Shown here piece by piece: positions 8,227-64,000 of a stretch of 64,000 nt of DNA. The translations under genes and the position numbers were made by a program. The stretch covers positions 7,022,971 through 7,086,970 of the forward strand of contig OZ038402.1 of the NCBI GenBank assembly GCA_964036045.1, given 5' to 3'. Under the pieces are notes generated by a model. It was not told the origin of the DNA, made no database searches, and worked only from the letters and a program-made list of their open reading frames with translations. The stretch's first letter is position 1; every line of letters begins with the position of its first letter. The stretch is from Eutreptiella sp. 'Long Island Sound 2002'. Taxonomy: Eukaryota > Euglenozoa > Euglenophyceae > Eutreptiales > Eutreptiaceae.

Positions 8227-8240
8227 GGTAGCAGAGGCAA
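8226..8240 (+). promoter_or_regulatory. Primer-binding site of element 1 (initiator tRNA-Met type)
   Basis: GGTAGCAGAGG starts directly after the 5' LTR. It equals 11 bases of the complement of the usual eukaryotic initiator tRNA-Met 3' end (TGGTAGCAGAGG). The first T would be the last LTR base, which is T in the 3' LTR and C in this copy. Confidence 0.75.
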
Positions 8241-8372
8241 GACCCCTTGGTGAGTCTCAGTGACAACTCCCCTGAGAGCAACACTCACCGGGGAGGACAA
8301 AGATATACACAAGAGGGCGAAGAAACCTGGACCTGGACCTGAACCTGAACCTGGGCACTGATACCTTACATT

Positions 8373-9545: not shown

Positions 9546-9567
9546 CGACGGCGGAGACTCGTCCTCT

Positions 9568-10965
9568 TTGAGTTATACGTCCTCCTCACCCCATTCTGAG
9601 GACCCTGATGGCCACCGAGACAGGAGCCGAAGGAAGAAGAAGGGGAAGGACAAGAAGGAGAAGGGCAAGAGATGTGACCACCATGAGCGTGAGGCCAAGG
9701 CCGTGGCCACCTCAAAAATCACTGTCAACCTGCCTGAGTTCTCAGGCAAGGACCTGAGCGAGTTCGCTGAGAGCTTCGCCAGGTTCCTGCGCCTGACCAG
9801 GCAGACGAAAGCCTCTGGGCGTGTTAAATGCCACCTGCTTCTACAATGCTGCAAGAACAAGTACATCGAGAAGCAGGTCAAGCAGGTCGTGACGATGTCG
9901 AAGACCTTCGCCGACGTGCTGGTGGGGCTGGAGAGGCTCTACCCCACGTACGAGACCGACCTGTCTATCAGGTCGGAGATTGCCAACCCGGCCACCCTGC
10001 CCGCCAATCCGAAAGCGTCACGGATCACGGAGCTCTTGGGTGACCTTGACCACTGGGTCGGGCGTCTAACGCCTGGCTCTTACGGGAGCGATGAGCTCCT
10101 GTTTTGGTTAGTCTCCAAACTCCCGAAGGAGGTATGGGACGACTGCCGCCTCACTGCGGAGCGCAAGGCCCGCACCCTGACGTACGAGGACCTGTCCGTC
10201 CTCTTGCTGGAGCTCGCCCTGGAGCGAGAAAGCGACCACCACCTGAACGCCTACCGTCCAGGGGGGAGTGGCGCTGGTGGCAGGGGTGCCCAGGGGTATC
10301 ATCGCCCTGGGCAGCAACAGAGGAATGCCCGGTACATGAAGGGGCATCTCTTCTGGTGCGACGCCACGGACTCTAGTGGCGCCCCGACTCATTCGCCCGA
10401 CTGCCCTCAACACAATTGCCTTATTGTTAAGGGGAAGAAGCAGCAGTCCAACACTGGGACGAAGGAGAAAATGCCAGACCACTTCAGGTGCACAGTCACC
10501 TGTTCCTTCTGTGGTCGCCGCAAACACTACGAGGACGAGTGCTATCACAAGAAGCGGCTGTCAGAACGCCTCAAGAAAGAGGTAGATGGGGGAAAAGGCG
10601 GTGGACAGGCCCCCTACCCCAAGAAGGATGACAAGAAGGACGACAAGAACTCCGGCAAGGGCAAGGGCAAAGGCAAAGGCAAAGGCCAAGACAAAAACAA
10701 GGGTCAAGGAGATGGAGGATCTAAGGGTGGACGAGGCCCTACGAATACGCCTCCCACGCCCACTACGCCTACTCCCGGGGGTTCTGCCACCCCCTCTACG
10801 CCGTCTAATGAGCCTTCTGATGTGACCACACGGTCCCAGGCTCAGAAACGTGGGGCTGAGGACGCTGACCAGCCCATGAGTACGGGGAAACGAACCCGAC
10901 TCCTCCGCATGGTACGCACGCTGAAGAAAGCGGGCGTTGAGCTAACCTTGCCAGCGGAGTTCTGA
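9568..10965 (+). CDS. gag: Gag capsid/nucleocapsid ORF of element 1
   Basis: The 465-codon frame contains a helical, charged region (residues ~60-230) of the retrotransposon Gag type. A zinc knuckle CSFCGRRKHYEDEC (C-x2-C-x4-H-x4-C, at 10501-10542) follows, then a long basic KG/KD tract. These are the RNA-binding parts of Gag, which packages the genomic RNA into a cytoplasmic particle. It ends in TGA at 10963-10965, and the protease ORF continues in the same frame, so Gag-Pol could be made by stop-codon readthrough. Confidence 0.75.
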   Translation: MSYTSSSPHSEDPDGHRDRSRRKKKGKDKKEKGKRCDHHEREAKAVATSKITVNLPEFSGKDLSEFAESFARFLRLTRQTKASGRVKCHLLLQCCKNKYIEKQVKQVVTMSKTFADVLVGLERLYPTYETDLSIRSEIANPATLPANPKASRITELLGDLDHWVGRLTPGSYGSDELLFWLVSKLPKEVWDDCRLTAERKARTLTYEDLSVLLLELALERESDHHLNAYRPGGSGAGGRGAQGYHRPGQQQRNARYMKGHLFWCDATDSSGAPTHSPDCPQHNCLIVKGKKQQSNTGTKEKMPDHFRCTVTCSFCGRRKHYEDECYHKKRLSERLKKEVDGGKGGGQAPYPKKDDKKDDKNSGKGKGKGKGKGQDKNKGQGDGGSKGGRGPTNTPPTPTTPTPGGSATPSTPSNEPSDVTTRSQAQKRGAEDADQPMSTGKRTRLLRMVRTLKKAGVELTLPAEF

Positions 10966-12830
10966 AAAGGGTGCTCCAGCGGGGGAGACGACTTGGTGTT
11001 CTGGGTTCGGCTACGCTTTGGGGGCCTCGAGTATCGCGGGGTATTGGATACCGGGGCAACTATTTCTATTGTGGCCAAAAAGATTTTACCTGAGGGTTTC
11101 TTGAAGAACACCGTACCTACCGCAGCCATCCGCGTGGGGGATGTCTATGTGGTGTACAGTTGTGGGGATACTCTGGTGGACGTGCCTATGGGGTCGAGGG
11201 ACATCGCCCATCGTTTCTACGTCATGGACAGGGAGGCATTTGACTTCGTCCTGGGCACGGACCTTTTCAGGGCGCACCCTCAGGTGCAATCCCTCACACT
11301 GCAATCGCCTTATGTCCTCTGTGTGGACCATGGCAATGGCAGGGAGTCTGTTTCGCTGGAGCATAGCGACCAAGTGTCTCGGCACCTACGGATTGCCGAG
11401 AAGATTCCCACCACCATGCTGGCTGCCGCCAGAAATGAGGACTACCAACTCCTTCGGGAGGTTTTGGACCAAGGGCTACGAGAATTGGGTTACTCCATGG
11501 AGGACCTACGGGTGGAGCTGTTCGCCAGTGACAAGCAGCACGTGCTGGACGTCTACTGCAGCCCGGGGGTAAGCAGCTCGTACAAATTTTACTGGCCCTC
11601 GTTCATCCTGTCTTACGGCAACCCCCGCTTCAGTGAGCTGGGGAAGGTTCTGACGAAGGTTGCGTATGAACGTGCCCGGATGGTTATTTGCACTCCCGAT
11701 TGGGGTGCTTGTGGGAAGAACGCCTACTGGCGTACCCTGCTCCGAAAACTGACTCTAACGTCAGTGAACCTACCCGATGACGCCATCTACGTGCCTTTGG
11801 GGAAGAACCAGCCCTTAAAGAAACCTGGATGGGGGAGTATGCTGAGCGTGGTGGACGGTGCCCTTGCACCGGTACCGTGGGAAGAGCTGGACTCCAAAAT
11901 TCTACGGGAGATCCAGAATGAGAGCAAGGATATGACTCTCGAGGACCTGACCAAGATGAGACAACCCCCCGATGCCATTGAGGTCGTGCCTGGGGGAGAC
12001 GAGTACGTCGTGACCGCTGAACCTAACCCCCCCCACCGTGAACCTGTTGTTGCTAACCCCGATGTCTACTCGGAGTGTGGGCTCTCCGAGCTGCCCAGCT
12101 CCATTCATTCTGGAGATGAACGAGAACATGACGCCTTCTACGTCCAGACCTACATCGAGGAGCTGGACCAGGCGGATGAGGAGCTAAGATGTGGAGAGAA
12201 ACCCCTCTTCTCAATGAGGAGGGAGACCTTCACCGAAGGGTTGGACCACCAGGGACGCCAAAAAGAGTACATGGACTCGAAGCGTCGCCTGGTAGCGGCC
12301 AAATTGAATTATGCCAGGCCCTCGACGAGCTCATGGCCTATCAAGCAAGGGGAAGAGGGTGACCTACGCCAACTCAAAGAGTCCCTCGACCAGCGCATCA
12401 CCACCTGGCAACGCGAGGTCGAACTGAAGAGGATGAAAAGCGTATGGGGCGCCCACGTTCGCACCCCCGATGAGGATGAACTCTCGAGGGAATGCCTATG
12501 CGAACCCCCCAGGGCTTGTGCTTGCTGCCCCAGTCCTACTGCGATCGTGGAGAGAGATCTCCTCTACGCCTACCAAGGGTTGAAGGAGGACAAAACTGAG
12601 CCGGTTGAGGACCACCTCCCGGCTTCTATCCACATGGAGAAGGGGGCCAGCAACCTGCACTCGGATGCCGACCTTGAGGACAAGATCCAGCAGCTGGACC
12701 CTCGTGTCCAAAAACTTATCCGCACGTACCGCGAGGTGTTTGGCGAACTACCGCCCCCCGCTTCGTGCGAGAAATTGGTGCAGATGGACCTCAAGTTGAA
12801 GCCCGAGTTCAAGGGCCATAAGATCGGAGG
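10966..12830 (+). CDS. pol: Pol N-terminal part: aspartic protease and methyltransferase-like module
   Basis: From 10993 the frame encodes a retroviral-type aspartic protease (V-L-D-T-G-A at residues 17-22, then FDFVLGTDLF at 83-92) that would cut the Gag-Pol polyprotein. A separate module at residues ~171-290 has ELFAS (175-179), YGNPRF (208-213) and CTPDWG (233-238). This layout recalls Dam-like N6-adenine methyltransferase remnants seen in some retroelements, with NPRF in place of a catalytic (D/N)PP(Y/F). A long linker with a Cys cluster near 12500-12530 leads to the start of RT at ~12730. Near 12825 the RT frame shifts by one base, so the last ~50 codons to 12987 are off-frame. Confidence 0.75.
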
Positions 12831-14195
12831 AGGCCCTACCCTGCTCCCAAAGAGCAGGCTGACGAGATCGACCGGCAGATACAAGAATGTATCGATGCCG
12901 GGCTCGTCCTGGAGTACAAGGACGGGGACTACCCCTCCCACTGCAGTCCTTGTTTCCTGGTTGCCAAACCAGGGTCCACGGCGTTGAGACTAGTGGTCGA
13001 CTATGGAGAGCTGAACAAGAAGACGGTGAACCACTCGGGGTCCATACCCAACATGGAGTCGGCCCTCGAGAAGATCGCCTCCTGTCGCTACAAGATCAAG
13101 ATGGACAAGAGGAGTGGGTTCTGGCAGGTCGACCTGACCCCAGATGCCCAAGAGCTGGTGGCGTTCATCACCCCTCAGGGGAGGGTGTTCAAGTGGAAGG
13201 TGATGCCCTTTGGCGTCGCCAACGCACCCGCTCTATTCCAAGAGCTGATGAACAAGATCCTATCCATCCTCCGCCGGAGGCCCGTGGTCCAGGAGCTGAT
13301 TGCCCGTGGAGCCCAGATGGAGGCACACATCGATGACGTATGCCTCGGGACCAATACCCAGGAGGATCACCCAGTCCTCCTAAGGGAGTTCTTTGATGTC
13401 TGCACAGCCTGCCACACACGACTCAAGATTGAGAAGTGCGAGTTCATGCAGGAAACCATGCAGTACCTGGGTTTCGACGTGGGCTATGGGTGGTGGACCC
13501 CTGCGGCCGCTAAGGCCAAACCCTTGATGGACGCTCAAGTGCGCCATGACAACCCCAAAAAAGGACTCCACGACGTGAGGAGCTTCATTGGGGCATGCAA
13601 CTTCTACCGCCGACACATCAAGAACTTCACCTACACCAGCGCCGTCCTGACCGACTTGATCAGGAAAACGACGACCTGGCGATGGGGACCCCAAGAGGAA
13701 AAAGCCTTTCAAGAGCTTAAGGACAAGGTGGCCAACGCCAAGTGCCTTGGGGTACCCCGGTCCCAGGGGGAGATGATTCTGGTGACGGATGCTAGCGACG
13801 TTGGTGGTGGAGGTTCCCTATTCCAATGGCAAGCACTAGAGCAAGAAGAGTTCGATTCCGCCATCTCTCAATGGGGTACGGAGGGGCTAAACCGTGATGG
13901 TACCCTCAAGCATACCTATCCCGAGGACAAATGGGTGTTGGTACCCCTGGGCCATTGGAATTGGAAATGGAACCAGGCGAGGTCCAACTACTCCACCTAT
14001 GAGCAAGAATTGCTCGCTGGAATGTTGGTGCTATCATCCAAGGCCCGGCTTATTGGGAGTAACCCTGTGGTGTGGCTGTGCGACCAAGAGCCAGTCCGCT
14101 CCTTTCAGAAGGGACCCCCGCCGGAGAAGGCTAAGCTACGGCGCTGTTGGACCTATTAGAGTCAGCTATGACTCACGGTTCACCACATCCCGGGC
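12720..14195 (+). pseudogene. pol: Reverse transcriptase and RNase H of element 1 (frameshifted, with stops)
   Basis: RT starts near 12720 in the protease frame and continues after ~12825 in the frame of 12984-14159. Seen are LRLVVDYGELNKKT, the IKMDKRSGFWQV catalytic Asp segment, MPFGVANAPALFQ, and AHIDDVCLG in place of the Y-x-D-D box. RNase H follows with VTDASD (D), YEQELLAG (E) and WLCDQEP (D). Stops TAG (14157-14159) and TGA (14169-14171) interrupt the otherwise open same frame before the integrase. Loss of one base at ~12825 plus two stops shows decay. RT/RNase H would copy the element RNA into DNA in the particle. Confidence 0.88.
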
Positions 14196-15902
14196 GTGAA
14201 GAACGAATGCGCTGACTATATCAGCCGCAACAACTTCGACGCCATGATTGGGGGCAAGTCCGAAGAGCTAGCCAAAGAGGCCTTCGCCCGTATGGACATC
14301 CACCTGGACTTGAACATGACCATGATCCGCCCTCTGGACGGACTCCAACAGGCTGAGTACCTGAAAGAGTTCGGAGACGTCTACAAACATGTGGACAAGC
14401 GCCTGGAACCCATCCTGATCAACCAAGACCAGCGGAAGCGGGACCAGCCCTACCTATTGTTTGAGGACCGTATTGTGGTACCCAGCGAGAGGATACCGGC
14501 CCTCCTGAAATGGACCCACGAGACTAGTGGGCATGTGGGAGCTGACCGCACCCTCAAGATGTTCAACTGGTGGTTCCACTCTACGTGGACCGATGACAGC
14601 CTACGCAAGACCTTGCTTCCTATCGTGGACAGATGCCCATGCAGGTCATGCAAACCTGGGGATGCCCGAGACCGCGGACTCTACTCCACACTCCCTATCC
14701 CCTACTGTGCGAACAGTGTTCTGCACGTGGACTACACGGAGATGCCAAAATTTGGCGGGTACGACTTCGCCTTGGTCGTGACCTGTGGGTTGACCCGATT
14801 CACACGGGTTTTCCCTTGTACTCGGCACATTACCAGCGAGGAGACCATCAAGATACTCCTGGAGGAATGGTTTGCCGTGTACGGAGCTCCTAAGGAGATC
14901 AACTCCGATGAGGATGTGCGCATACGCTCGGATACCGGCTGGTACAAGAGGATTCCACGATCCCTCAATGTCCAGGTATCCACGGGGATTCCCTATACTC
15001 ATACGAGTAACCCCCTATGCGAGCGCCAGATTCGAGTCCTCAAGGAGAACGTCCGGATATGGTGCAAAACTGAGCGCACCAAAGATTGGGTGAGACTACT
15101 CCCCTTCATATCTGTGATGATGAACTCTCAGGAGAGTTCCTCTACGGGGTACTCCCCCCACGAACTGTTCATGGGGAGACCCGCATGGCACCTACACGCC
15201 CCCTACCCCGAGGATTCCTACTCCTCCGTGGGAGGTTGGCTGAAGGAGCAAGAGGACAAGATGGAGAAGGCCAAGGCCATTCTGAAGACCGTTCGAGAAC
15301 GGCAATGGAACAAGAAGAACAAGCACCGCCAACCCGCGACCTATCAGGCGGGTGACTGGGTCCTGGTCCATCACAGCCGACTACCGGCTAGGCCACGCTC
15401 CACCAGCGATGACCCCTACTTTGGCACCTACAAAATCCTCTCCGTGGATGGCCATCGCATCACGGTGCGATGTAGCCCCCGACTAGGGGGCACTCTGGTT
15501 TGTGCAGCTCAGCAGCTCAAGCACTTCTACGACCCGGAGGACCTATGCGGAGAGGAGTGGGAGCTCAACGACGAGGAGGTCGCCGCGCTGGACCTACAGG
15601 GCGCTGCCAGCCCCATGGAAGTCGAGGACTCCCTGCCCGACATGGATGCCGAGGAGATGGCCAAGGAGGGGTACTACCTCGTGAAGAGTGTCCTCCGCCA
15701 TCGTTACCGCCAAGGCTGGCGGTTCCTCACCCTATGGGAAGGGTTCCGGGTCGATGAGGCCACCTGGGAGCCCCTTTCAGCCTTTGTGCTACCTGATGGG
15801 CGCCTTAATTCAGTTCTGGTGGACTACTTGTCCCAGAACAACCTTGGGGAATTGCTACGTTTGGCTGAGGCACTTGCCTCCAAACGTAAACCTAAGGAGT
15901 GA
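14172..15902 (+). CDS. pol: Integrase with C-terminal chromodomain of element 1
   Basis: Numbered from 14196, the frame has an H-x4-H (H108, H113) and C-x2-C (C149, C152) zinc-binding N-domain. A D,D35E core follows: D179 in LHVDY, D240 in NSDED, E276 in NPLCERQIR. A basic linker and a chromodomain near residues 495-560 (GYYLVKSVLRHR, then WRFLTLWEGF and TWEP) complete it. Chromodomains of Ty3/gypsy chromoviruses guide insertion to particular chromatin marks. The frame runs to TGA at 15900. Together with the upstream RT this is the 3' part of Pol. The integrase itself shows no break, though two stops precede it. Confidence 0.9.
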   Translation, partial: LTVHHIPGVKNECADYISRNNFDAMIGGKSEELAKEAFARMDIHLDLNMTMIRPLDGLQQAEYLKEFGDVYKHVDKRLEPILINQDQRKRDQPYLLFEDRIVVPSERIPALLKWTHETSGHVGADRTLKMFNWWFHSTWTDDSLRKTLLPIVDRCPCRSCKPGDARDRGLYSTLPIPYCANSVLHVDYTEMPKFGGYDFALVVTCGLTRFTRVFPCTRHITSEETIKILLEEWFAVYGAPKEINSDEDVRIRSDTGWYKRIPRSLNVQVSTGIPYTHTSNPLCERQIRVLKENVRIWCKTERTKDWVRLLPFISVMMNSQESSSTGYSPHELFMGRPAWHLHAPYPEDSYSSVGGWLKEQEDKMEKAKAILKTVRERQWNKKNKHRQPATYQAGDWVLVHHSRLPARPRSTSDDPYFGTYKILSVDGHRITVRCSPRLGGTLVCAAQQLKHFYDPEDLCGEEWELNDEEVAALDLQGAASPMEVEDSLPDMDAEEMAKEGYYLVKSVLRHRYRQGWRFLTLWEGFRVDEATWEPLSAFVLPDGRLNSVLVDYLSQNNLGELLRLAEALASKRKPKE

Positions 15903-18419
15903 CGCCCGGAGTGGCTCCTTGTTTGCCTATACCTTCTCAACCTTACCCAATGTATGTGTGAGTGTGCTACCTACGAGGATGAGGCCTAATGAAACCCGGC
16001 GGGAAAGCGACCGTTCTCCAGTCATTCGCCAGCGTCGGACCGAAGGTCCTAACTGGGTACTGCTTTCCCTTGGCTATGCGCCCAATTTCTGTGCTGGCGC
16101 TCCTTGGGGAAATCCTAAGGCAAAACGCCTCTAACCTAAGAGGGGTGGGTTGGGCTTTCCCCCACTAAGGGCTTTGAAAACGCCCGTTTGGCTATGAGCC
16201 CATGAAGACACTAACCTAACCACGGCCCTTGGACTCCGTGAGGAAAACACGCAGCCCATGGGCACACCCACTCCAGGGGGTCTTGTCAACCCCGTGGTCC
16301 TACACACGCTAATGGTGGCACCAGCCGCTTGTCCCGGCCTACCACGCCTACACGCACTCACTAACTTGGTGTTGCCATGCAGAAGGTCTCGAGGGGCCTC
16401 TCCTAACACACTACGGGGGAGGGGTCGGCCCCACCTGCAGCGAAATGACAAAGCCTTAGGGGCCTTGGCCTAAGAGGGGACGCCACGACGCGTTACCCCC
16501 TCCTAGGGCTTGGAGTGTCGTGCTAACCGTGCGCAAACGTCTTGGTTACCACCTCTTGTCCTTCGCAATCAAGTCGAGCCCTGGGCCTCCGCCATTGGGC
16601 GCTAGGGAGGGTCGGCCTCAGGGCGCTCTGCGTTTATGAACCTCACGTTCATGCCCATTGAGAAAAAAACTGGGCGTCCAGGCCAATGTGATCAGCGCCC
16701 CACTTTTGTGCTCGGGACTTTTGCACCACCGTCGTCCTTACCTTGTTCTTTTCCCACCTAAGAGCAGAACAGCAATGGGAGAGAGTTTGGGCCAAGAACC
16801 TAAGGCCGCTCGTCCAGCTAACAGGAGTCTTCGCGACGAAAAAAATTCAGCTCCCAAACGCTCCCGTCAAGCAAGCAAGCTTAGCTAGAGGCTCCCTCCG
16901 TTCTCTTACAAGAACTTATAGAGGAAACCCCGTTTACCCTCTAACAAGGTCATACCGTGCGCACCACGCGTGGCTTACCCTTTAATGCATCGTATGACAC
17001 ACGTATGAGAGGAGAAAAGAGCGGGAAGGGAGCAGTGAGGGGACTACTCAACCTTGGAGTCGGGGCCTGCCACACGCTCCAAGGGCTTACCTTTCCATGC
17101 CTCGTCGTACTGCTCGCTGTTCATATGCACGCACGTGTGTCATGCGCTGCCATGCGCCTGCTGTTCCTAAGAGACGTGCAGATGCAAGCAATCGAAGAAG
17201 CGGAGAAGGTGATCGCGCAAATCGTGTCTAATCATCGCGCGCACGGAGCAAATCTTCTAATCAGGCGTGAACAATCGATAACATACCTCAGTCTTCTGCG
17301 CCGCAGCACCTGTGAAGAAGCGCAGAAGGCGAGAGCGAGTGCAGTGTGGGTGTGCGCGCGCAAACCTGCACAAGAACGAAGCGTGACGGGCGACGATCTA
17401 CTAATCTTTGTCCTAAACGCGCTGATACGGCTAATCTGACCTACTAACCTGTGTTGTCGAAACACAGTTTCCTACGCTAAGTGTGTAGTGCAGTGCCGGT
17501 GCAGTGTGCAGTGCAAAGCAGCACACCTGTTTTGTTTCTTTCCGAAAGTTCTTTTATCGAAGTCCTTCTGGACTTCTCCTGTCTCTGTCTTGTTGTAGTT
17601 TTTGCGTAGTTTCAGTTTCCTGTGAAGGTTTACGTCGCAAGACGTAACATACCTGTGTATTCCTCGTCATTCTGTAGAACTCTGCGACAATTCGTCGCTG
17701 ATTAACCTCTGCCCTTCCGCAGGCGCCAGATACGGTTTTCTTAAAAATCCACACGGCAGATGCAGCGGCATTCGGTAGCACAGCGGAAATGCGGGCGACG
17801 CCCAATTCCGTTGCGCCGGTTCGATTCCGGCTGAATGTATTACGAAGATGGAGATGGGCAGTGCAACTCCTATTTTTTGTAACTCCTATCTTTTTTTTCA
17901 CAGGGTATAAAGGTTCCTATTCCCCTTTCTGTTCCACAGGACGCCTGCCTGTGACTGTCATGGCACGCCTACGCGTTCTGGGGGCGCCTGCAGTCCTGGC
18001 AAGAACTGGGATCCAAGTCCTCCCAATGGAGGCAATATAAAAATCAGGGGTGATGATCCCCCTTAATCTGAGTCAGAGACAGGTGCCAGGTTCCACTGTG
18101 AGCAGCGACGCTGAGCTAAACAGCCTGATTGACCAGCAAGGATCGCCTTGAGGGCGAATCTGTATTTGCATTGCCTTGGGATATAGGGAGGATGCATGAG
18201 CATGTTGAAGCCTTGCATGCCACTTACCCAATCATAACCCACTGGTCCACTGATGGACAGTGGCAGCTTTATGGCATTTCTGGTTGCTGCAGCACCAGAG
18301 CATTGTGTTTGGGAGGATGTAGGTTAATGAAAAGAAATGCATGGACAAGCCATACCTTGGGACAGAGAAAATGAACCCCTTTTTTCCATAAGTGACAGTG
18401 GTAGGCCACCACAGCACTA
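15903..18419 (+). other. Long 3' non-coding region of element 1
   Basis: About 2.5 kb separate the end of Pol from the 3' LTR. No retroelement gene is recognisable. The region has similar C/G-rich blocks at 16134-16190 and 16469-16520 (CCTAAGAGGGG... and a CCCCC-...-GGGCTT segment), and a tRNA-like sequence at 17768-17838. An extra gene with unrecognised short exons cannot be excluded. Confidence 0.5.
17768..17838 (+). tRNA. tRNA-like sequence, probably tRNA-derived element
   Basis: The 71-nt stretch has a 7-bp acceptor-like stem (GCATTCG with TGAATGT, including two G-T pairs) and a perfect T arm (GCCGG-TTCGATT-CCGGC). It also has a perfect A box (TAGCACAGCGG) and B box (GGTTCGATTCC). The anticodon arm is wrong: a 5-bp GCGAC/GTTGC stem closes a 10-nt loop and no variable loop remains, so no confident anticodon can be read. 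It is best viewed as a tRNA relic or SINE head inside the retrotransposon. Confidence 0.45.
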
Positions 18420-18425
18420 GGGGGG
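18420..18425 (+). promoter_or_regulatory. Polypurine tract of element 1
   Basis: GGGGGG directly abuts the first base of the 3' LTR (AGTAAG at 18426). This is where plus-strand DNA synthesis of LTR retrotransposons is primed. Confidence 0.75.
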
Positions 18426-19298
18426 AGTAAGAAAAAAGTGTGCCAAGATGCCCCAAGTGTGCCTTGATTGTCACCAGGACACTTCTGACTGATTTGCATA
18501 CCTAAAGCTTAGTATTTGTGCTCAAAATCATGGTTTTATGCATTTTTGCCTACAAAACCAATCACAGAAAATGGTGGAAACATCAACGTTTTTTCATCAT
18601 TATCACAATTGGAACCCATGGTCCGAATTGAGGGGTGGAACCCCCTTTTGCCCTGCATGAATCCAATTGCTTGGTTCTCTATTTATATTTAACTATTTCT
18701 TGGAGAACCGACGGAGAACTGACATGAAACAGCCCCTATTAGGTTCTTTTTACTCAGTTATCAGAAAACCCAATATGGTCTAGTGGTATGGATCCTTGGG
18801 TATAAGAACCACCTTTCTGGGAGGTCAGGGGTTCAAACCCCAATAGCCTAACTCAGTAGGATTGGCCCTGATGACATTGCATGACATGGCAATGACCTCA
18901 CATGCCACATACATGCCACCTCATCAAAATAAGGACCAAATCCAAAGGGTGAACATCTCAGGGATGCTCACCAGGCTGAGGGTGAGACCCTGGGGCAGTT
19001 TTTCTATCTTTTGCTCTGTGGAGTTGACTATCTTTTCAAATATGCAGTTTGTTTGTCTATTCTGGTTGCTATGCACTGATTCGTTGTAAATAGAGAGCTG
19101 TACTTATCTTCTATTGTGTGCAGCCCTCTTGTGATATGATCAACTTCATTATCTTGGTGCCCTGTGATCCTGTTTGCCTTCGTTTTGCTACTCTGGGACC
19201 TTTTTGAAACGTTGTCTTGCTGGTCAACACCAGAAACCCTGAGAGCAGGAGAACATCAACAAAGCAGGACAACCAAGCATCAATCATCAATCCTTTCT
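18426..19298 (+). repeat. 3' LTR of element 1
   Basis: Same 873-bp length as the 5' LTR and the same order of landmarks at a constant offset of 11072 bp, including the tRNA-like A/B boxes. It ends CTTTCT, followed by the GCCTT target duplication. Confidence 0.9.
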
Positions 19299-19303
19299 GC
19301 CTT

Positions 19304-43699: not shown

Positions 43700-43883
43700 T
43701 GGTTCTGACATCATGTTTGTTCGCTCCCCTGCCAAAAGTCAGCGCCAACAAGAAGGATCGGGTTCTGATGCCCCAGCACCCCCATCAGCAGTCCCCGACA
43801 ACGCCACGACGGAAGAGTTGAAAGTACTCCTGGACCGCCAGAGGCTGGAAATGGAGGGACTCAGAGCGCGGACCAGGCTGTAG
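43700..43883 (+). CDS. 5' coding fragment of the YR element, cut by LTR element 2
   Basis: The frame ending at 43883 contains a charged helical stretch (TTEELKVLLDRQRLEMEGLRAR), a plausible Gag-like coiled coil. It breaks at the TAGTC duplication where LTR element 2 inserted. The other side resumes at 51533 with a frame reading ALNEATLQEFQGRERLPQ. The original start is not evident and may overlap the satellite edge. Confidence 0.4.
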
Positions 43884-43885
43884 TC

Positions 43886-44542
43886 AGTTAAACAATTTGG
43901 GTTTCGGCTCCTTTACTATGTCCCCAAAATACTCAAGTTTCAAGTGAGGAAAATGTGTGCGTGCACAAAAATACTCGTTTCAAAAAGGAAAACCATTAAC
44001 CTACAACTAACAAGAACAAGACTCACATAAAGCAAAGCAAGGCAAAGCAACAAAGCAAATATACTCGTTGTTGGAGGTGTACATGGTCCGCCAAGCCGCT
44101 GTCTTGACCCCACCATTTCTGTTTCTCCTTGGCGGCGGGTTGTGGTGGTCATGACATTGAGGATCCATACGGCCATACCCATTGTACACCCGGGCACCCA
44201 GACATGGGTGCGGCTCTCCAACACCCCAAGCTGCAAGAGCAAGGGATGATGTGCTTTGCTATGCTATTTAGCTCTGCTCTATGAGTCGATCTCAGAACTT
44301 CAGTACACGGATTATACTAGCGTAATAACAAACTGATACGACAATTCGACAATTAATCGATGATAAACAGCGATGAATCAATGAAAATTGAACACGTATC
44401 TGAATCACAGGAGACGTGAATATTAACTGTCAAAAACTGACATTCGCGACAGGGATTGCGACATTTAATCAGACGACAAATCGGATCAGCGAATCAATAA
44501 CAGACCTACAGGCGTTTTTAAGGAAAAAGGATTTTTCTTACT
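43886..44542 (-). repeat. 3' LTR of element 2
   Basis: 657 bp, identical by eye to 50876-51532 at a constant offset of 6990. Its first 11 bases on the minus strand equal those of the element 1 LTR. Confidence 0.85.
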
Positions 44543-44550
44543 CCCCCCCC
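44543..44550 (-). promoter_or_regulatory. Polypurine tract of element 2
   Basis: Eight C on the plus strand (GGGGGGGG on the minus strand) directly precede AGTAAG of the LTR, the same arrangement as in element 1. Confidence 0.7.
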
Positions 44551-47500
44551 AGTACCCACACCGAAGGTGGGGGAACTCCAAACAAAAAGCGCCTGGACAA
44601 CGCTGCAGCACTATGCAGCTCCCTGCAGTACAAGTCTACAGGTATGTTAATTCACTACCTGCAACTCGTGCCAACTGAGTCGGTCAGCAAAAAAAAACTG
44701 ACAACTGAGCACACTTGTAATTTTTGGATTGCGCCCAAGCGAAGCGCAGGAGCAGGGGGAAGGGTCAGAACAGAAGCAGAGCCTCGCTCTCCACTGAAAC
44801 TCGGCAGAAGTAGAGGCGTCAGGCTGCAAAGGGGGACCAGTCTTCCAGCTGCAGGTCAGTAATCTTCTCTCTTTTTTTTTTTGTTTTTTTCTTTCTTTTT
44901 TTTTTTTTTTTTTTTTTTTTCTTTTTTTTTTTTTTTTTGCTGATGAATATCATTCCCTATTCCCTGACTGTGCCCTGACTGAACTCTGGACGTCCTTGGC
45001 CACTTGTGAAGGGTATTGGCACTGAGGGTAGCGACCCCCCAGGAGCTTACAGCGTCTCCCTCTACTTGTCCCTTGGTTTCGAAGCGATTCAGCAAGGAAG
45101 GGGTTTCTTGGCATTGCCATAGCAAAGGCCTGGGTTCCTGAGCTGGCCAGGCAAGGCACCTTCAGGTCCTACAGGCAAGAAAAGAATTCGGTCAGGGGCT
45201 CAGACAAAGAAGTAAATAAAAATACAGGATTGGTTCCAATCAGACTTACTGAGGCCTGCTGGGGTTAGACACGCGCACCTGAACCGGTGGTACTCTGACC
45301 CAAGCCTCTACCCTCCCTTGAACCACAGCCACTGTACTAAAAAGTAAGTATCAACTCAACTAACCCCTGTGCAGGGGGTTCCTCACTGGCTGATCAAGCC
45401 AACTAGGCTGTGGGGGGGGCTGCACGACTGCCGAGTACCCCACTACCTTCGACTAGGGGCGTTCCCCCTAGGTGAGCCTGCTTGCTCTTGAGGTACCTCA
45501 GGAGACCTTCATTGGGCATGCCTTTTTATGTAATACGTCCATTCTCAATGGGCGACACATCAGAGCGATTTGACGCTCTTACAACTCTCTCTCGATTGGT
45601 ACCTACAAGGGTGTTTGACCTTGCGTTGTCTCCCTCTAGCCCTCCAAACAGAGCAAACAGAGCCAAGGCCTACCATTCAGCACTATTCTGTCATTGTAAG
45701 GGGGTGGAAGCCTCGGTCTCAGTTCCTCCCCGCCCATGGTTGCGTGACCCCCAGCACCTCCAGCTGCTGAAAAGCAGAACACCTGCAAAATCCTAACAGA
45801 GGATTGCTAAATTAAGACAAGTCTGGTCAGCGTCCCCACCTGTCAGGCAGTGAGGTGCAAACTAAAATTACATGGGCAAAAGGCAAAAATAAATTCAGTC
45901 AGATGTTTCAAAAGAAGGAGGGTAACCAACACTGATCCCTCCTGAAGGAAATGAAGAAGAACTGAAGGAAATACTGGTTCTTAACTGAACCCAGTTACAT
46001 CTGTAAAACAAAGTAAGAACACTAATGCAGGACTTATGGGCTGGCTGATCAGACCAGTGCCCACCTGTGTAGACACAGTATGTCTGGTGGTGGTACCCCC
46101 ACCAGAGTGTAACTTCAGTCTATTTTCCCGAAACAGGAGTAGAAAAGGGAAATGGCTGTAGTTGATGTAAACATCTCAAACAGGTCACGGGGACTATATT
46201 GACTGTCGTGCAGAGTAAGTAGATAATGGGCTCATAAAATAAAGTTTTATAAATAAGGAGAACAGCAGAAAAATGCCTCAGGCCTTAGGCTCAGGCCTTC
46301 ACTGAACACAGTACACACTTGATACTTCTATAGCGCCCAAGAGAAGCGCATCAGTCTCAGTGGACTAAAGTCGGGACTAGGTTAGCCTGGCAGTTGCCAG
46401 GATCTGCAACAGAACGACGTTCTGCCTAAACGACCACAACAGAAACAGAGAAACGACAGGACTGAGCTAACACTCACAGCATGGACCCTAGTGCTAGACT
46501 CTGGACAGCTTACTAGGGGCCTGCGTGCGTGTGCATGCCTGTGTGTGTATATGTGTGGGGTGGCATGTGTGCCCCCCCCCCCCCCTGTTTCTGGTTTTCT
46601 TTTTATTTTCATAGGCAAAAGGCCTCAGTGGGTAAACACCACTCTTGTCAGCCAAAATTCGGCAAAAGTTTTATTCCACAAAAAACTGGTTGTTTGTGGT
46701 TGCAGTGCTGTACACAAAGAGCAAAGGGCAGTCAGAGGCCTGCTCGGCGGCCGAAAGACCTGGAACCTGCAAGAAGAAATACCAGCTCAGCCCTTCCTTG
46801 ACACATTTTTTTTTTTTTGTTGTTTAGGGAGGGGTCTTTGACTCTGAGCTCTGGTACTGGCTCAACAGGTCACTGCGATCAGGGTGCCTTGTCCCTTTCA
46901 AGCGCCGTCAAGACGCCACTCTCTCTTCGTTTTGCTGGGGCTGGCAGATCTGGCAGATCAACAGTATGACGCCAATCATACCCCCCCCCCACTGTCCAGT
47001 CGCGAGAGGGGACCTCAGGGAGCACGGGACAGTGGTAACAGCGGCAAACCAAATAACCACACACTGTGGCGTCCAGTAAAAAAAAGAATTGCATATCTTA
47101 AGCAAAGGCTCAGTTTGCGCTGACGACCCCAGCGCAGTGAGCCACACTGTCCCTATTTGTTCATTAACGTCTCAGGCAAATATGCCAATATGCAAATATT
47201 CCCAACAGTCCCAACATACCAACACCCAAGCTGAAGGAGTATTGGAGAGAAAAGACGGAAACAAACCCAAACCACGGGTGACTGCCCCGAAGAGCAGCAA
47301 AACCCAGAGGGTGAGTAGAGAAGAACAGGAGTAACCCAGTGGACTCATAAAATACAAAGCCAACAAACAGCCAAACACCTGTAGTTATATCTGAACCTGA
47401 GCACACCCAGTCCTGCCGCCGGCACGGTCCCTCGATCGCTCAGGGCCCGTCAGGTCGTTGTTCTCAAAGCACTTGTCAAGGTTCAACGCTCTCGGCAAAC

Positions 47501-47566
47501 AGGGGCAGAGTTGTCATCTGGGCGGCGGGAACGGAGGTCACTCGGAAAATTCTCCCCTGCCACAGT
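44551..47566 (-). other. Non-coding internal region of element 2
   Basis: No recognisable gene on either strand. It contains a ~70-bp T-rich tract at 44868-44938 (poly(A)-like on the minus strand), a C13 run near 46572-46586 and a C10 run near 46980-46990. The base composition is lower in G+C than the adjoining gene pieces. The A-rich tract may be the tail of a captured mRNA. Confidence 0.5.
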
Positions 47567-48018
47567 TCAGGGAAATGTCGCCATCAGTCCAGGTGGTGGC
47601 ATAACTGCACTCCATGTAGCGGACGTGGGACAAGTGCAGCTCTGGCAGACTGTGCCATTAGCGACAGTCTCGTTGACCTCAGTGGTGGTCAGGTTCTCAT
47701 TGCCAGCGAAGTTGGGGCCGTTGCCGGACAGCCCGGAAAGGCGCTCGGCCCGGGACGGACTCGGGCGCGGCAGTCGCTCCAACACACACTCCGGCTGCGT
47801 GGCCCTGCGGCGCGGCGCCACGGAGACGGCGGACGGGCAGGTGCTAAAACCTCAGGTGCTCTGACACCTCGCAGTCCCCGCAACAGGCGCAGTTCGTCGC
47901 TCGGCATGACCTGCACCTTGGCATAATACGTCGTTCCCTCCGACAGCACCAACGGCAGCTTCCCATTCTCTGGACTGCTGGCGTTCTGCTTCGTCCTTCT
48001 CCAGTCCTGCAGGTCCAT
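47567..48018 (-). CDS. Unidentified minus-strand ORFs downstream of the EEVS-like piece
   Basis: Two overlapping minus frames (48018-47689 and 47821-47567) include LVLSEGTTYYAKVQVMPSDE and GNENLTTTEVNETVANGTVC. They look protein-like and could be one sequence split by a frameshift. No family was recognised. They follow the other captured gene pieces on the same strand, so they may be another host fragment. Confidence 0.3.
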
Positions 48019-48254
48019 CAGCCCGTCCTCCCACTGCTTTGCGTTGGCCTGCAGTTGGCGCTTCCCGGGCCCAGGATGTTGTGGGGCAGCCGTTTTAGGC
48101 TCAGCTCCGCGTGGGATCGCCCGACGGAAGGCACCCCAGAGTCCAAAATAATTCGAAACCCAGCTGATGGCGTATGCTGACTACAAATCGACGAAATACC
48201 ACGGGGGCTGCGCAGTTGCGTCTGCGTCAGTCCCTGCGGTCTGGAAGGCGATGT

Positions 48255-49243
48255 GACTTAGGGCCGTCGCACTCGACGTGACTCGGCGGCCGTTGCGCTC
48301 GCTCCACCATAGGCTGGGGTGACGGGGGAGGTAACAGGTGCGTAGGCCATGTCCATGCCAGCAGGGTACGAAGGTGGCTTTTCACCAGGCACTCCACCGA
48401 GGCAATCGGGTACTACTGTTGGACTGTGTAGTTCTCCACTGTCGGATATTGTGGGTACACTGCCTCCTTCTCCTTGGCCAAAACTGGAGGGACGGCTGCA
48501 GCCTTGGCAGCCATCTTCATGAGGAGCAGACCTGCAATACCAACCAATGGCAGAGCGAACAAGGCGAACAAAGCCCACAATCCATTGTTGCTGTCGTCGG
48601 AGGAGGACGCGGTCTGGGAGTAGCTGGCCACACAGTAGTAGTTGCCGGTGACAGTGGTGCCCTGGGTCAGGGTCCAGGTGCAGCTGCAGGTGTAGCTGGA
48701 AGGGCAGTCGGTGACAGAGCAGGAGGTACCACGGCACGGATGCAGCATGTCCGATGCCACTTCGTAGCCAGGAGACCAGGTGTGTCCGAACGCATGAGGG
48801 CGGCACTGATGTGTCTCCCACAAACTACTGTACTCAGACTTCACATAGGAATCCAAAGCCCCGCCAATGACCAGGTCACACAGTTTATCGAACTCTTCAT
48901 CCTCGGGGCTGTCGGTCATGTTTACTGTACCAAACTTGGTTCGGATAAGCTTTGGTCCAGCCTTTTGCCTCAAGCCGAACAACTTGTAATCCTTAGTGAT
49001 GGCCATCTTGATGATCTCGGCGAGACCGTGACGAAGCCAGCCCTCGTGCAGAGACGTGAAGAAGTAACGGTCTGTGATGGTGAGCACAGGGGAATGGTAG
49101 GTACCATACAAATTCTGGTAGCCAAACCCATCGCAGCAAGTTCTCGGGGACGGACCAGCGTCAGCCAAACCCATGGCAGCAAGTTCTTGGGGACGGACTC
49201 TGCAGCTCACTGTCTTTTTTACAGAAGCAACAACCCTTTGCAA
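48255..49243 (-). pseudogene. EEVS/DDGS-like sugar-phosphate cyclase fragment fused to a Cys-rich membrane tail
   Basis: Residues ~41-168 of the minus frame match the C-terminal half of the 3-dehydroquinate synthase superfamily. LYGTYHSPVLTITDRYFFTSLHEGW precedes GLAEIIKMAITKD (metal ligand E76), then RPHAFGHTWSPGYEVASDMLH (H150/H154 and H168). The wording is closer to EEVS/DDGS cyclases, which make precursors of mycosporine-like UV sunscreens, than to AroB. The NAD-binding N-terminal half is absent. From residue 169 the frame runs into an unrelated Cys-rich segment, a hydrophobic helix (GLWALFALFALPLVGIAGLLL, ~221-241) and a P/Y-rich tail. A frameshift near 48420 moves the tail to a frame ending near 48255 (with PPSYPAG). 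A ~40-bp tandem duplication (about 49123-49202) lies at the 5' end. Confidence 0.7.
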
Positions 49244-49517
49244 TAAAATTTGAAATGGAACATATCTTCTGAGGGCCTACGCATTAAACGACTGTTCCCT
49301 CTGATGTGAACCATTAGCTGCCCACGGGCACAGTGTGTAATTACTGCCGCACCAAATTAAGAATAAATACCACAGAGCCTGCTGTACTTGTAAAATGGGC
49401 ACGTGCAGCAGGCTTCACTCAAACTGCTCACCTATGGGCTCTTCTTCGTAACTTCTGCAATTTATATTGGTTCCGAAGGTCTGGCGAGCAATCCCATCAT
49501 GGCTACTGCCACAGCAC

Positions 49518-50206
49518 CTACTGCTGGGAGCGCTTGGAGGCGTACATGCCCAGACCCGCACCCTTCAGGGGGGCCGCGTCGTTGGTCAACTTCTTGTTCG
49601 CGGCCTCGGAGCGGTCATAGTAGTCCTGGTCGAAACCACCAGAGAGGTTGTCCTTGTTGGCGTTGGAAGAGACGAACAGAGTGATCAGCAGGAAGGTGGG
49701 CAGGATGATGAAAAGAGCGGTGGCAATGGGGGCCAAGCTGTTGGTCTGCATGGCGAAGGCAGGCTCAGCAGCCAACAAAGAAGCTCCAGAGAGGGCACCG
49801 ATGGTGGGGACCTGCTTCTGGGACTTGATCTTGTACACAACGGCACCCACGGCAGCAGACACAGCGCCAGCAAAGGCCAGGGCCCAGTTGTTGGACGCGG
49901 GCTGCGCAGCCTGGTACATCACAGGCTGGACAGTCTCATAGTACTCAGCATCGATGGCCTCCTCAGGGGCACCGTACACCTCGTTGACGTTCTGGGTGGC
50001 ACCCATCTGGGTGACAGGGCCATGGTCATGGCAGCAGGGCGCACAGTGGTGGCGACAGGGGCGTACAGGCTGGTCTGGGCATTGGTGTAGGAAGAGTCAG
50101 CGACACCGGTAGTCACACCAACCGCAAGCGAGGCGGTGGCAACGAAGGCCACAATGGAGGTGGCGCTCCACTTGTTGTCAAGGTTCTGGTAGGCGACACG
50201 CTGCAT
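49518..50206 (-). CDS. psbM: PsbM-like photosystem II protein precursor, nuclear type, frameshifted
   Basis: ATG at 50206 begins MQRVAYQNLDNKW, followed by a hydrophobic stretch (SIVAFVATASLAVGV) and an S/T/A-rich segment. This is the layout of signal plus transit peptides of complex plastids. The frame shifts near 50018, where a run of three C instead of four would account for it. It continues as MGATQNVNEVYG with another hydrophobic segment and an AEPAFA lumenal-type cleavage site. The mature part (~49751-49655) reads TNSLAPIATALFIILPTFLLITLF, matching the single helix of PsbM, a small subunit at the PSII dimer interface. About 45 extra residues rich in D, N and K extend the C-terminus beyond the usual ~34. 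It follows the LHC fragment directly and lies in LTR element 2. It is either a recently broken copy or a sequencing error. Confidence 0.78.
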
Positions 50207-50489
50207 TTTCTGAGTGTACGTTCCAAGCGTCCTCCCTGGCCAGTCACGTTGGCCTGAACGTAGTAACCCATCATGGAAACCATGGCGAACCCACCGTTCT
50301 TGATCTCCTTGACTCAGCAAAGGCGGTGGGATCGTCAGCCAAACCAAGAGGATCAAAGGCCTTGCCAGGATAGCTAATGTTCAAATCCTCACCAAGAGGA
50401 CGCCCGGTAAGCCTCAGACAGACCATCAGTAGAGCCTGGAAAACCAACACAGCAAGGATGCCGTGTACGTTGTCGCACGCATATGACAC
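50207..50489 (-). pseudogene. Light-harvesting complex (LHC) C-terminal fragment
   Basis: The minus frame reads HGILAVLVFQALLMV, then RPLGEDLNISYPGKAFDPLGL and ADDPTAFAE, a signature of chlorophyll a/c-binding LHC proteins before the third membrane helix. A small deletion after AFAE shifts frame. The next frame gives KEIKNGGFAMVSMMGYYVQANVTGQGG, the third helix with its chlorophyll-binding E and N-G. The usual C-terminal residues are replaced by a short junction leading straight into the PsbM ATG. The N-terminal two helices are missing, so this is a captured fragment rather than a gene. Confidence 0.82.
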
Positions 50490-50857
50490 AACTCAAAAAT
50501 AATCCAGAGAGCAGCTTGCCTTCGGCTGTTCAACCGCAGCCTGGGAATGAACGACAAAATGTTTGCGCTTGGTTGTGGGCGCAACCGGATTTCGATGTAC
50601 GTGATGATGGCGGCACTCAAGGCGTAGTTGACAAGGTGATCTTCTGGTCAGCAAGCCCAGGATTCACCACAGCTGCTACAAGATGACAAGCAAGACAACA
50701 AGAACCTAACCTAAAAAAAATTTCCGTCAAACAAGCAAGCAAGAGACAAGGGTGCACAAGCACGCTTTCCTGTTACTCAAAAACTGAGTACTTTCGGAGC
50801 CGGCACAAGAAAGTGCCAAAAATGGCTACTAACCATTAAAGTGGCCTTGACCTTTTT
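50490..50857 (-). other. 5' leader of element 2 internal region
   Basis: Contains short LHC-unrelated frames and, at 50813-50829, GTAGCCATTTTTGGCAC on the minus strand. This is close to the core of the dinoflagellate spliced leader (GTAGCCATTTTGGCTC) with one extra T. A T8 run (minus strand) lies near 50713-50721. Confidence 0.4.
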
Positions 50858-50876
50858 GGCCATGCCTCGGCTACCA
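50858..50876 (-). promoter_or_regulatory. Primer-binding site of element 2
   Basis: Directly inside the 5' LTR (minus strand) is TGGTAGCCGAGGCATGG. It differs from the initiator tRNA-Met complement TGGTAGCAGAGGATGG by one substitution and one inserted C. It also resembles the element 1 site (GGTAGCAGAGGCAAG). Confidence 0.7.
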
Positions 50877-51532
50877 GTTAAACAATTTGGGTTTCGGCTC
50901 CTTTACTATGTCCCCAAAATACTCAAGTTTCAAGTGAGGAAAATGTGTGCGTGCACAAAAATACTCGTTTCAAAAAGGAAAACCATTAACCTACAACTAA
51001 CAAGAACAAGACTCACATAAAGCAAAGCAAGGCAAAGCAACAAAGCAAATATACTCGTTGTTGGAGGTGTACATGGTCCGCCAAGCCGCTGTCTTGACCC
51101 CACCATTTCTGTTTCTCCTTGGCGGCGGGTTGTGGTGGTCATGACATTGAGGATCCATACGGCCATACCCATTGTACACCCGGGCACCCAGACATGGGTG
51201 CGGCTCTCCAACACCCCAAGCTGCAAGAGCAAGGGATGATGTGCTTTGCTATGCTATTTAGCTCTGCTCTATGAGTCGATCTCAGAACTTCAGTACACGG
51301 ATTATACTAGCGTAATAACAAACTGATACGACAATTCGACAATTAATCGATGATAAACAGCGATGAATCAATGAAAATTGAACACGTATCTGAATCACAG
51401 GAGACGTGAATATTAACTGTCAAAAACTGACATTCGCGACAGGGATTGCGACATTTAATCAGACGACAAATCGGATCAGCGAATCAATAACAGACCTACA
51501 GGCGTTTTTAAGGAAAAAGGATTTTTCTTACT
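50876..51532 (-). repeat. 5' LTR of element 2
   Basis: 657-bp copy of 43886-44542. The minus-strand order LTR, primer-binding site, captured sequences, G8, LTR fixes the direction of the element. Confidence 0.85.
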
Positions 51533-52033
51533 TAGTCCCTGCACTCAACGAGGCCACGCTGCAAGAGTTCCAGGGACGCGAGCGACTGCCCCAGTAGATG
51601 CGAGATACCCTGGGCGCCTTGAGGCAGTACGTGGTGGCGGTACCGCGGCCCGCGCGACCGGCCAGAGTCGGGGGGGACGTCGCTTCGCAGGCCAGCCCGG
51701 GCGATACCCTGGCATACAGGATGTGGGCATGCCTGCAGCAAAGCCATCAGGCTTACAGATCCCGGTACACGGCGCAGCAGCAGAGTGCAGAGGCCAGAGA
51801 CACGCTGGACAAGCTACCGTGGGAGGAGGCATTAGCGCGAGGCGGCCCAGAGGTTCACATACCGCGGGGTGAAGTTCGTCACCCAGGAAGGTGTACTGAA
51901 GTGGATTGCCAGCAATGGCAATCATATTCCCGTGGCTGCCACGCCTTCAGGAGACTGCCGGCGATGCCGAGACCTACGCAAACCCGAAGGGGAGCGCCAG
52001 CACTGGCATTTCAAGTGCCGCTATTGGAGCTGA
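51533..52033 (+). pseudogene. YR element Gag-like region downstream of the insertion
   Basis: From the second TAGTC the frame reads ALNEATLQEFQGRERLPQ, stops at TAG (51595-51597) and stays open to 52071. In another frame (about 51837-52033) a short ORF has CRRCRDLRKPEGERQHWHFKC, a C-x2-C...H-x-x-x-C arrangement like a small zinc finger. These are probably the end of a Gag-like protein, broken by stops and frame changes. Confidence 0.4.
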
Positions 52034-63743: not shown

Positions 63744-64000
63744 CAAGAAAGAGTTTCTGGTTTTCCCTGCTTGTTGTTGGAGTTCAAAACCTTGATTGGT
63801 TTTCAAAAGGATGTTTCCCCAAACTGCAAAAAGACCAAGTCCACGAGCAAGGATCACCACAAACAGGATCAAAGTCAGACTGTTGAATGATAGTCTTCCA
63901 AACGAAGCATAGTAAGCAAAGAGGGGCTGCATATAAACAAAGGAAGAATCCAATACACAGCATCAAAAGGATTTATAAACATTATAGTTGATTTTGGGTG
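63744..64000. other. Non-satellite flank, no gene seen
   Basis: Short A+T-richer sequence. An overlapping minus-strand frame reads into the satellite and shows no domain. This could be the edge of another insertion or unique flanking DNA. Confidence 0.4.

What the first reader, a model, noticed from the sequence alone, without database searches (positions are those of the whole stretch)
43886..51532. An LTR retroelement with nuclear photosynthesis and sugar-cyclase gene pieces in place of gag-pol
Sequence: 657-bp LTRs that look identical, a TAGTC duplication, a primer-binding site and a G8 tract all fix a minus-strand LTR element. Its interior encodes, on the same strand, an LHC C-terminus, a PsbM precursor and an EEVS-like cyclase piece. 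The LHC piece abuts the PsbM ATG and the cyclase is fused to a foreign membrane tail. Known: plant transposons (Pack-MULEs, Helitrons) shuffle gene fragments. Inference: this element captures host mRNAs or fragments, could express chimeras, and moved recently, since the LTRs match.
Basis: partly seen in the sequence, partly recalled or inferred. Interest (0 to 1): 0.88.

Follow-up and report, generated by a model that had tools for sequence, protein, structure and literature searches.

The report
Euglenid jumping element carrying stolen genes
A mobile DNA element in the genome of a Euglena-like alga lacks its own machinery genes and instead carries pieces of host genes, among them photosynthesis genes; comparison with sister copies shows that two of the pieces were picked up in a later step, a clear snapshot of a process known from plants.

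Summary
Window 43886-51532 (minus strand) is a complete LTR element: two identical 657-bp LTRs, 5-bp target duplication, initiator-tRNA-type primer site, G8 tract, no gag-pol found. The genome (2.28 Gb, probably a photosynthetic euglenid) holds nine near-identical two-LTR copies at about seven sites, plus older relatives. All 12 copies with interiors carry an LHC piece and a membrane-protein piece; only the window copy carries PsbM and the sugar-phosphate cyclase. These lie in one 1,492-nt segment (48728-50219) in place of 516 nt found in six of eight young sister copies, so capture was stepwise. The nearest parents found are open reading frames on other chromosomes: PsbM (C22, C17), a cyclase-O-methyltransferase fusion (C2, C13), an LHC polyprotein gene (C5), a membrane protein (C7). 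Sense orientation of all pieces and 6-nt microhomology at the PsbM/cyclase join favour template switching during reverse transcription. The two newly captured parents have uninterrupted coding sequences, so missing introns prove nothing. A gypsy element in the window shares LTR start, PPT and primer site and suggests the helper type. Captured PsbM and LHC frames are broken; expression is untested. This is the maize Bs1 kind of process, with before and after copies.

The parts
43881..43885 (.). target-site duplication TAGTC, left copy
   Evidence: TAGTC also at 51533-51537
51533..51537 (.). target-site duplication TAGTC, right copy
50876..51532 (-). 5' LTR (657 nt), starts AGTAAGAAAAA
   Evidence: 0 of 657 differences from the 3' LTR
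43886..44542 (-). 3' LTR (657 nt)
50860..50875 (-). primer-binding site GGTAGCCGAGGCATGG; 7 of 8 young sister copies read GGTAGCAGAGGCATGG, one (L013) as here; initiator tRNA-Met type (tRNA assignment recalled)
44543..44550 (-). polypurine tract, eight G next to the 3' LTR
50233..50472 (-). LHCII-type chlorophyll a/b-binding protein piece, frame changes inside; older capture, present in 12 of 12 copies with interior
   Evidence: nearest gene found G000:C5:59686718 and tandem units; 15 of 240 substitutions
48728..50219 (-). window-copy-specific segment, in place of 516 nt of L009, L010, L013-L016
   Evidence: BLAST colinearity stops at 50220 and resumes at 48727
49190..50209 (-). captured PsbM piece: coding region 50206-49518 (frame broken near 50018) plus about 330 nt of 3' flank
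   Evidence: 27 of 1020 substitutions from G000:C22:36471546
48731..49198 (-). captured internal piece of sugar-phosphate cyclase, with 36-nt stutter copy at 49198-49163
   Evidence: G000:C13:4294915 (24 of 433 substitutions) and C2:170645389 (31 of 433)
48152..48727 (-). piece of host membrane-protein gene (older capture); its start reads in frame from the cyclase piece in a 287-aa open frame 49276-48413
   Evidence: nearest gene found G000:C7:62988771
47507..47632 (-). weak second match to the same membrane-protein gene, earlier part (76% over 75 nt, 79% over 48 nt)
   Evidence: origin uncertain
44872..44938 (-). 67-nt A-rich tract on the sense strand (poly(A)-like)
7354..19297 (+). Ty3/gypsy-type element: RT and RNase H above Pfam cut-offs; protease, integrase and chromodomain matches just to well below their cut-offs; same LTR start, G6 tract, near-identical primer site; suggests the type of helper

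Best explanation
A non-autonomous LTR retrotransposon family of a euglenid, mobilised in trans by a Ty3/gypsy-type element, has taken up host gene pieces in at least two steps. SHOWN: 12 of 12 copies with interior carry an LHC piece and a membrane-protein piece; only the window copy carries PsbM and a cyclase piece, in one segment that takes the place of sister sequence; the nearest parents are genes on other chromosomes; the window copy has identical LTRs and its own target duplication. INFERRED: while minus-strand cDNA was being made, reverse transcriptase left the element RNA in the membrane-protein piece, copied part of a cyclase mRNA (with a slip), switched to a PsbM mRNA at a shared CGTCCC, ran close to its start codon and returned to element RNA in the LHC piece; the chimeric copy later transposed and inserted at the present site.
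For: LTRs, target duplications, primer sites and PPTs in nine two-LTR copies. PsbM and cyclase in 1 of 12 copies, LHC and membrane piece in 12 of 12. Colinearity breaks at 50220/48727 against six young sister copies, and the older copies L018 and L020 have the uninterrupted membrane-gene start. Nearest parents located. LHC, PsbM, cyclase and membrane pieces all sense. Microhomology CGTCCC at the PsbM/cyclase join. PsbM differs less from its nearest gene (2.65%) than this copy's LHC (6.3%) or membrane piece (7.9%) from theirs. Different parts of the copies give different trees, as expected of template switching between copies. The cyclase::membrane fusion is also in a JGI protein, P0013, 98% identical, so it is not peculiar to this assembly. 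LTR start, PPT and primer site shared with the window's gypsy element, these patterns occurring nowhere else in the window.
Against: No intron test: PsbM and cyclase parents have uninterrupted coding sequences and the membrane-gene and LHC pieces each match a contiguous stretch. No 5' UTR at the PsbM start. The cyclase piece is 5.5% from its nearest sampled gene and the LHC piece of the old copy L018 only 3.1%, so divergence is a poor clock and true parents may be unsampled. Young sister copies hold an intron-like GTGAGT...TTTACAG stretch (by eye), so unspliced RNA or DNA may also enter. About 10 nt at each outer join are unexplained or ambiguous. No autonomous partner with the same LTR was identified; that search did not complete.
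Confidence: 0.78

Rival explanations
1. The host pieces entered by DNA-level events (double-strand-break repair with ectopic templates, or recombination inside an older insertion) and the altered element was later copied by retrotransposition.
For: PsbM and cyclase parents have uninterrupted coding sequences, so RNA and DNA origins look alike; young sister copies keep an intron-like stretch; microhomology also fits end-joining repair.
Against: All four main pieces lie in sense orientation; two unlinked genes are joined with no sequence of other origin between them; PsbM homology starts 3 to 6 nt before the start codon although the parental loci continue; tree conflict between element regions fits reverse-transcriptase recombination.
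Confidence: 0.17
2. The window copy is an assembly chimera or a duplication artefact.
For: Large repetitive genome; the insert occurs in only one of 12 copies; no reads were available.
Against: The target duplication is perfect, the insert differs from the assembled PsbM and cyclase genes by 2.65% and 5.5%, and the JGI protein P0013 has the same cyclase::membrane join. The PsbM/LHC and PsbM/cyclase joins have no witness outside this assembly.
Confidence: 0.03
3. The chimeric frames are functional new genes kept by selection and expressed from the LTR (not exclusive of the best explanation).
For: A 287-aa frame joins cyclase and membrane tail; the same fusion occurs in a JGI protein.
Against: PsbM and LHC frames are broken; 9 synonymous and 5 non-synonymous changes and one gapped codon in PsbM; the cyclase piece lacks most of the enzyme. 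No expression data.
Confidence: 0.06

Closest known systems
Bs1 of maize (LTR element with pieces of three cellular genes)
   Same: LTR element carrying joined pieces of several host genes that formed a hybrid gene (PMC13317346, passages read).
   Different: Host is a euglenid; other genes; the capture is resolved in steps by before and after copies. Bs1 itself was not compared by sequence.
LTR-captured genes of rice and sorghum
   Same: Host genes captured by LTR elements, 672 in rice and 1,343 in sorghum (PMC3726574, abstract read).
   Different: There genome-wide catalogues; here several pieces joined in one element and added in sequence.
Abnormal template switching in Triticeae LTR elements (Veju, BARE-2)
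   Same: Chimeric elements attributed to switching between unrelated packaged RNAs (PMC13317346, passages).
   Different: There unknown sequence or another element's sequence; here host genes with located nearest parents.
LARD / TRIM non-autonomous LTR elements (recalled; TRIM papers seen only in search listings)
   Same: LTRs, PBS and PPT kept, no gag-pol, moved in trans.
   Different: The interior here contains recognisable host gene pieces.
Pack-MULEs and Helitrons (recalled)
   Same: Shuffle host gene fragments.
   Different: DNA transposons; this element has LTRs, primer site, PPT and 5-bp duplications.

Membership tests
LTR retrotransposon | paired direct LTRs with target duplication | tested here: met
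   six sites with perfect 5-bp duplications; the C23 trio has 4 of 5
LTR retrotransposon | primer-binding site and polypurine tract next to the LTRs | tested here: met
   nine of nine two-LTR copies
LTR retrotransposon | gag-pol (autonomous member) | tested here: not met
   gag, protease, RT and integrase ORFs of the window's gypsy match nothing between the LTRs of the nine copies; Pfam found no such domain in seven interior ORFs. Hence non-autonomous
Ty3/gypsy | gypsy-type pol order and RT phylogeny | not testable with these tools
   no pol in the element; only shared LTR start, PPT and primer site with a gypsy-type element
Gene-transducing LTR element (Bs1 kind) | pieces of two or more unlinked host genes between the LTRs | tested here: met
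   nearest genes on C5, C7, C22/C17, C2/C13
Gene-transducing LTR element (Bs1 kind) | introns of the parents absent from the captured pieces | tested here: inconclusive
   no captured piece clearly crosses a parental intron
Gene-transducing LTR element (Bs1 kind) | hybrid frame transcribed and translated | not testable with these tools
   no RNA or protein data
Pack-MULE / Helitron | terminal inverted repeats with longer duplication, or Helitron ends without duplication (recalled) | tested here: not met
   LTR structure and 5-bp duplications
Processed retrocopy made by a LINE | poly(A) end and target duplication directly around the gene copy | tested here: not met
   no poly(A) or flanking repeat at the joins of the PsbM/cyclase segment, read

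The most novel reading that the evidence does not exclude
This LTR family is an active mRNA-recombining vehicle in a euglenid: its helper's reverse transcriptase repeatedly joins abundant host mRNAs (light harvesting, photosystem II, sunscreen-type cyclase) into the element, producing a succession of chimeric genes that are re-dispersed under an LTR promoter, some of them expressed as plastid- or membrane-targeted fusions.
Probability: 0.12. Interest if true: 0.78.

Novelty: new member of a known kind. Interest (0 to 1): 0.5.

Why it matters
Gene capture by LTR elements is mostly seen as an end product. Here one genome holds copies from before and after a capture, with nearest parental genes located, so joins and order can be read. 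It extends the Bs1-type process to a euglenid (LTR elements make up a fifth or more of the E. gracilis genome in PMC11252322, passages) and gives a testable case for how host mRNAs enter retroelement cDNA.

Tried and rejected
Dinoflagellate host with spliced-leader relic: rejected. A fuzzy search of the window for the dinoflagellate leader gave four matches, all with four or five edits, against none to six with five edits in five shuffles; none lies at a captured gene's start. The LHC piece is green a/b type, its top-scoring multi-domain hits are Euglena LHCI of 9VFJ, and the genome is 2.28 Gb against 2.37 Gb published for E. gracilis (PMC11252322, passages). Species identity was not established.

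LTR as a small-RNA carrier (Cassandra-like): LTR positions 370-458 match a 703-bp tandem repeat unit at 97%, but Rfam (window at gathering thresholds; L022, L023, L001 at E up to 1), ARAGORN and folding (z +0.48) gave no support for an RNA gene.

Intron loss as proof of mRNA origin: rejected as proof. PsbM and cyclase parents have uninterrupted coding sequences; an apparent exon-joining of the second membrane-gene piece did not hold up on alignment. Nuclear psbM of euglenids is reported with a conventional intron (PMC4770533, one passage); the three coding regions here have none.

JGI contig lengths: P0013 lies on a 7,116-nt contig, close to element length minus one LTR (6,990) plus 127.

Searches that found nothing: viral contigs, phages, genome contigs. 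In print: the listings showed no title or abstract start on gene capture by LTR elements in euglenids; this covers only the held open-access library and capped lists.

Not answered (genome machine busy). The search of the remaining interior (44551-48200) and the genome-wide PPT/LTR-start pattern were therefore never run.
Full report
WHAT IS THERE. On the minus strand, 51532-43886 is a 7,647-nt LTR element. Its two 657-nt LTRs are identical and it is flanked by TAGTC. A primer-site-like sequence follows the 5' LTR and eight G precede the 3' LTR. No gag or pol was found inside: the gag, protease, RT and integrase ORFs of the window's own gypsy element match nothing between the LTRs of the nine two-LTR copies, and Pfam gave none in seven interior ORFs. 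Upstream on the + strand lies a 215-bp satellite array; downstream lie ORFs of another retroelement (RT match in 52872-55163). I take that element to be DIRS-like, but Pfam found no recombinase in the ORF 52034-53734, so the label is a guess.

GENE PIECES. Pfam and PDB searches support PsbM, a sugar-phosphate cyclase and an LHCII-type protein (the query there joins two frame pieces). The membrane tail matches two proteins without a Pfam domain above cut-off, P0133 and P0134. The PsbM frame begins at 50206 and breaks near 50018; the 162-aa ORF that looks like a whole protein is its later part.

THE FAMILY. Search of the host genome (G000, 2.28 Gb, 2,205 contigs; window = C25:7022971-7086970) with the LTR listed 46 matches; 40 of 1,304 first-look candidates were scored, so counts are lower bounds. 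Of the 46, 18 are at 97-100% (nine LTR pairs), six at 89-95% and 22 are short (89-96 nt). The nine pairs look like seven insertion sites: three on C23 share the 10 nt printed on either side and are probably duplicates of one insertion. Six sites have perfect 5-bp duplications; the C23 trio has 4 of 5. LTR differences within copies: window 0 of 657; others 3, 4, 9, 10, 11, 11, 12 and 20 of 655-657, so the window copy is the youngest by this measure. The primer site reads GGTAGCAGAGGCATGG in seven of eight sister copies and has the window's variant in one, L013.

BEFORE AND AFTER. tblastn of four protein queries against the nine copies and the fetched older loci: the LHC piece and at least part of the membrane piece occur in 12 of 12 (window, L009-L016, L018, L020, L021), PsbM and the cyclase only in the window copy. 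L017, L019 and L024, also fetched, gave LTR matches but no gene-piece match. L020 and L021 each show one recognised LTR and L018 one and a part. The window copy is colinear with sister copies up to 50220 and again from 48727; between lies a 1,492-nt segment in place of 516 nt in L009, L010 and L013-L016 (428 nt in L018, 443 in L020). L011 and L012 resume only at 48546 and lack residues 1-122 of the 215 in the P0133 query, so this stretch varies in other ways too. L018 and L020 have the uninterrupted start of the membrane piece, so the window state is derived. Just inside the right join the window copy reads like L018 and L020 at several positions where L009-L016 differ: another sign of mosaicism.

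NEAREST PARENTS. PsbM: three intact 229-codon frames, C22:36471546, C22:36466551, C17:1044711. The captured piece runs from 3 to 6 nt before the start codon through about 330 nt of 3' flank, 27 of 1,020 substitutions from the nearest gene; 9 synonymous and 5 non-synonymous changes plus one codon with a gap in the coding part. Cyclase: six copies about 6 kb apart on C2 and two on C13, in open frames of 824-926 codons; the two scanned encode a cyclase-O-methyltransferase fusion of 868 aa. The best PDB match of one is 5tpr, ahead of 4p53; I recall these as a DDGS and an EEVS, so 'EEVS-like' is only roughly right. The captured piece is an internal 433 nt, 24 substitutions from C13 and 31 from C2, with a 36-nt stutter. 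LHC: a polyprotein gene on C5 (40 of 821 candidates scored). Membrane protein: C7:62988771.

JOINS. PsbM 3' flank and cyclase share CGTCCC where they meet. At the left join about 10 nt match neither the sister copies nor the PsbM genes; at the right join about 10 nt are ambiguous.

MECHANISM. The LHC, PsbM, cyclase and membrane pieces are all sense and their nearest genes are unlinked. A sequence of template switches during minus-strand cDNA synthesis explains the order in one event. A 1.2-kb stretch of the 3' interior places the window copy outside the other eight young copies (100/99), the 5' LTR and leader place it with the C23 trio (97/98) (midpoint roots); such conflict fits recombination between copies. 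Against a simple clock: the cyclase piece is 5.5% from its nearest gene and the LHC piece of the old copy L018 only 3.1%. DNA-level capture is not excluded, because no captured piece clearly crosses a parental intron.

HELPER. The window's gypsy-type element (7354-19297, LTRs 96% identical) has RT and RNase H matches above Pfam cut-offs; protease (20.3 against 20.7 bits), integrase (29.0 against 32.6) and chromodomain (18.1 against 25.1) fall below theirs. It begins its LTR with the same 11 nt, has G6 before its 3' LTR and GGTAGCAGAGGCA after its 5' LTR. In the window AGTAAGAAAAA occurs four times, at the four LTR starts; the primer-site pattern occurs twice, at the two sites. Beyond these ends the two LTRs share only matches of 11 nt or less. 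So a gypsy-type helper is likely; this particular element is not shown to be it. Flanks of three sister copies (L010, L011, L012) match the window's gypsy, so they sit in its relatives; L019 (gag, protease), L021 (weak RT) and L020 (non-coding 3' part) also hold such matches, outside or at undefined edges of the older copies.

A SECOND SIGHTING. P0013 (JGI, 224 aa) contains the same cyclase::membrane join at 98%. P0001 (JGI, 229 aa) is an intact PsbM precursor that shares with the window copy two residues in which the three genes of G000 differ; whether it is a host gene or lies in an element copy is unknown.

HOST. Green-type LHC polyprotein genes, nuclear PsbM and genome size (compare PMC11252322 passages) point to a photosynthetic euglenid, probably Euglena. 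This is inference.

JUDGEMENT. Gene capture by LTR elements is known from maize Bs1 and from rice and sorghum (PMC13317346 passages; PMC3726574 abstract). What is added here is the stepwise record with before and after copies and located nearest genes, in a euglenid.

Noticed in passing
window 4385-7353 and 19300-20608: Repeats of about 1.3-1.7 kb at 82% identity around the gypsy element; the minus-strand ORF 6264-7079 matches the GTP-binding domain of elongation factors. I read LepA-like fragments in it and in 4901-5929 (the latter without a Pfam match): perhaps a second host-gene piece that has multiplied.
   Followed up: partly
LTR positions 370-458 (window 51163-51075); L022, L023, L033:3785-3879: 89-nt stretch of the LTR is 97% identical to part of a 703-bp tandem repeat unit found at many loci, and 75% to a stretch between two PsbM genes. 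No Rfam, tRNA or folding support.
   Followed up: partly
G000:C2:170645389-170677899 and C13:4294915, 4313694: Six plus two cyclase genes, the two scanned being fused to an O-methyltransferase, a mycosporine/gadusol-type architecture (recalled), in single open frames.
   Followed up: partly
L010:2264-2330 and the same place in other young copies: Intron-like GTGAGT...TTTACAG stretch of about 67 nt, not evident in older copies L018 and L020 (read by eye).
   Followed up: no
window 28150-29676, 36528-43692, 57988-63745: Long arrays of a 215-bp satellite; in the last one the orientation changes at about 62050 and again at about 63309.
   Followed up: no
window 30066-31655 (-): ORF of 529 aa matching DDE_Tnp_1_7 (Pfam: Transposase IS4; piggyBac-type by recall).
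   Followed up: no
L010, L011, L012 flanks: Three of eight young sister copies are inserted in relatives of the window's gypsy element: nesting or target preference.
   Followed up: no
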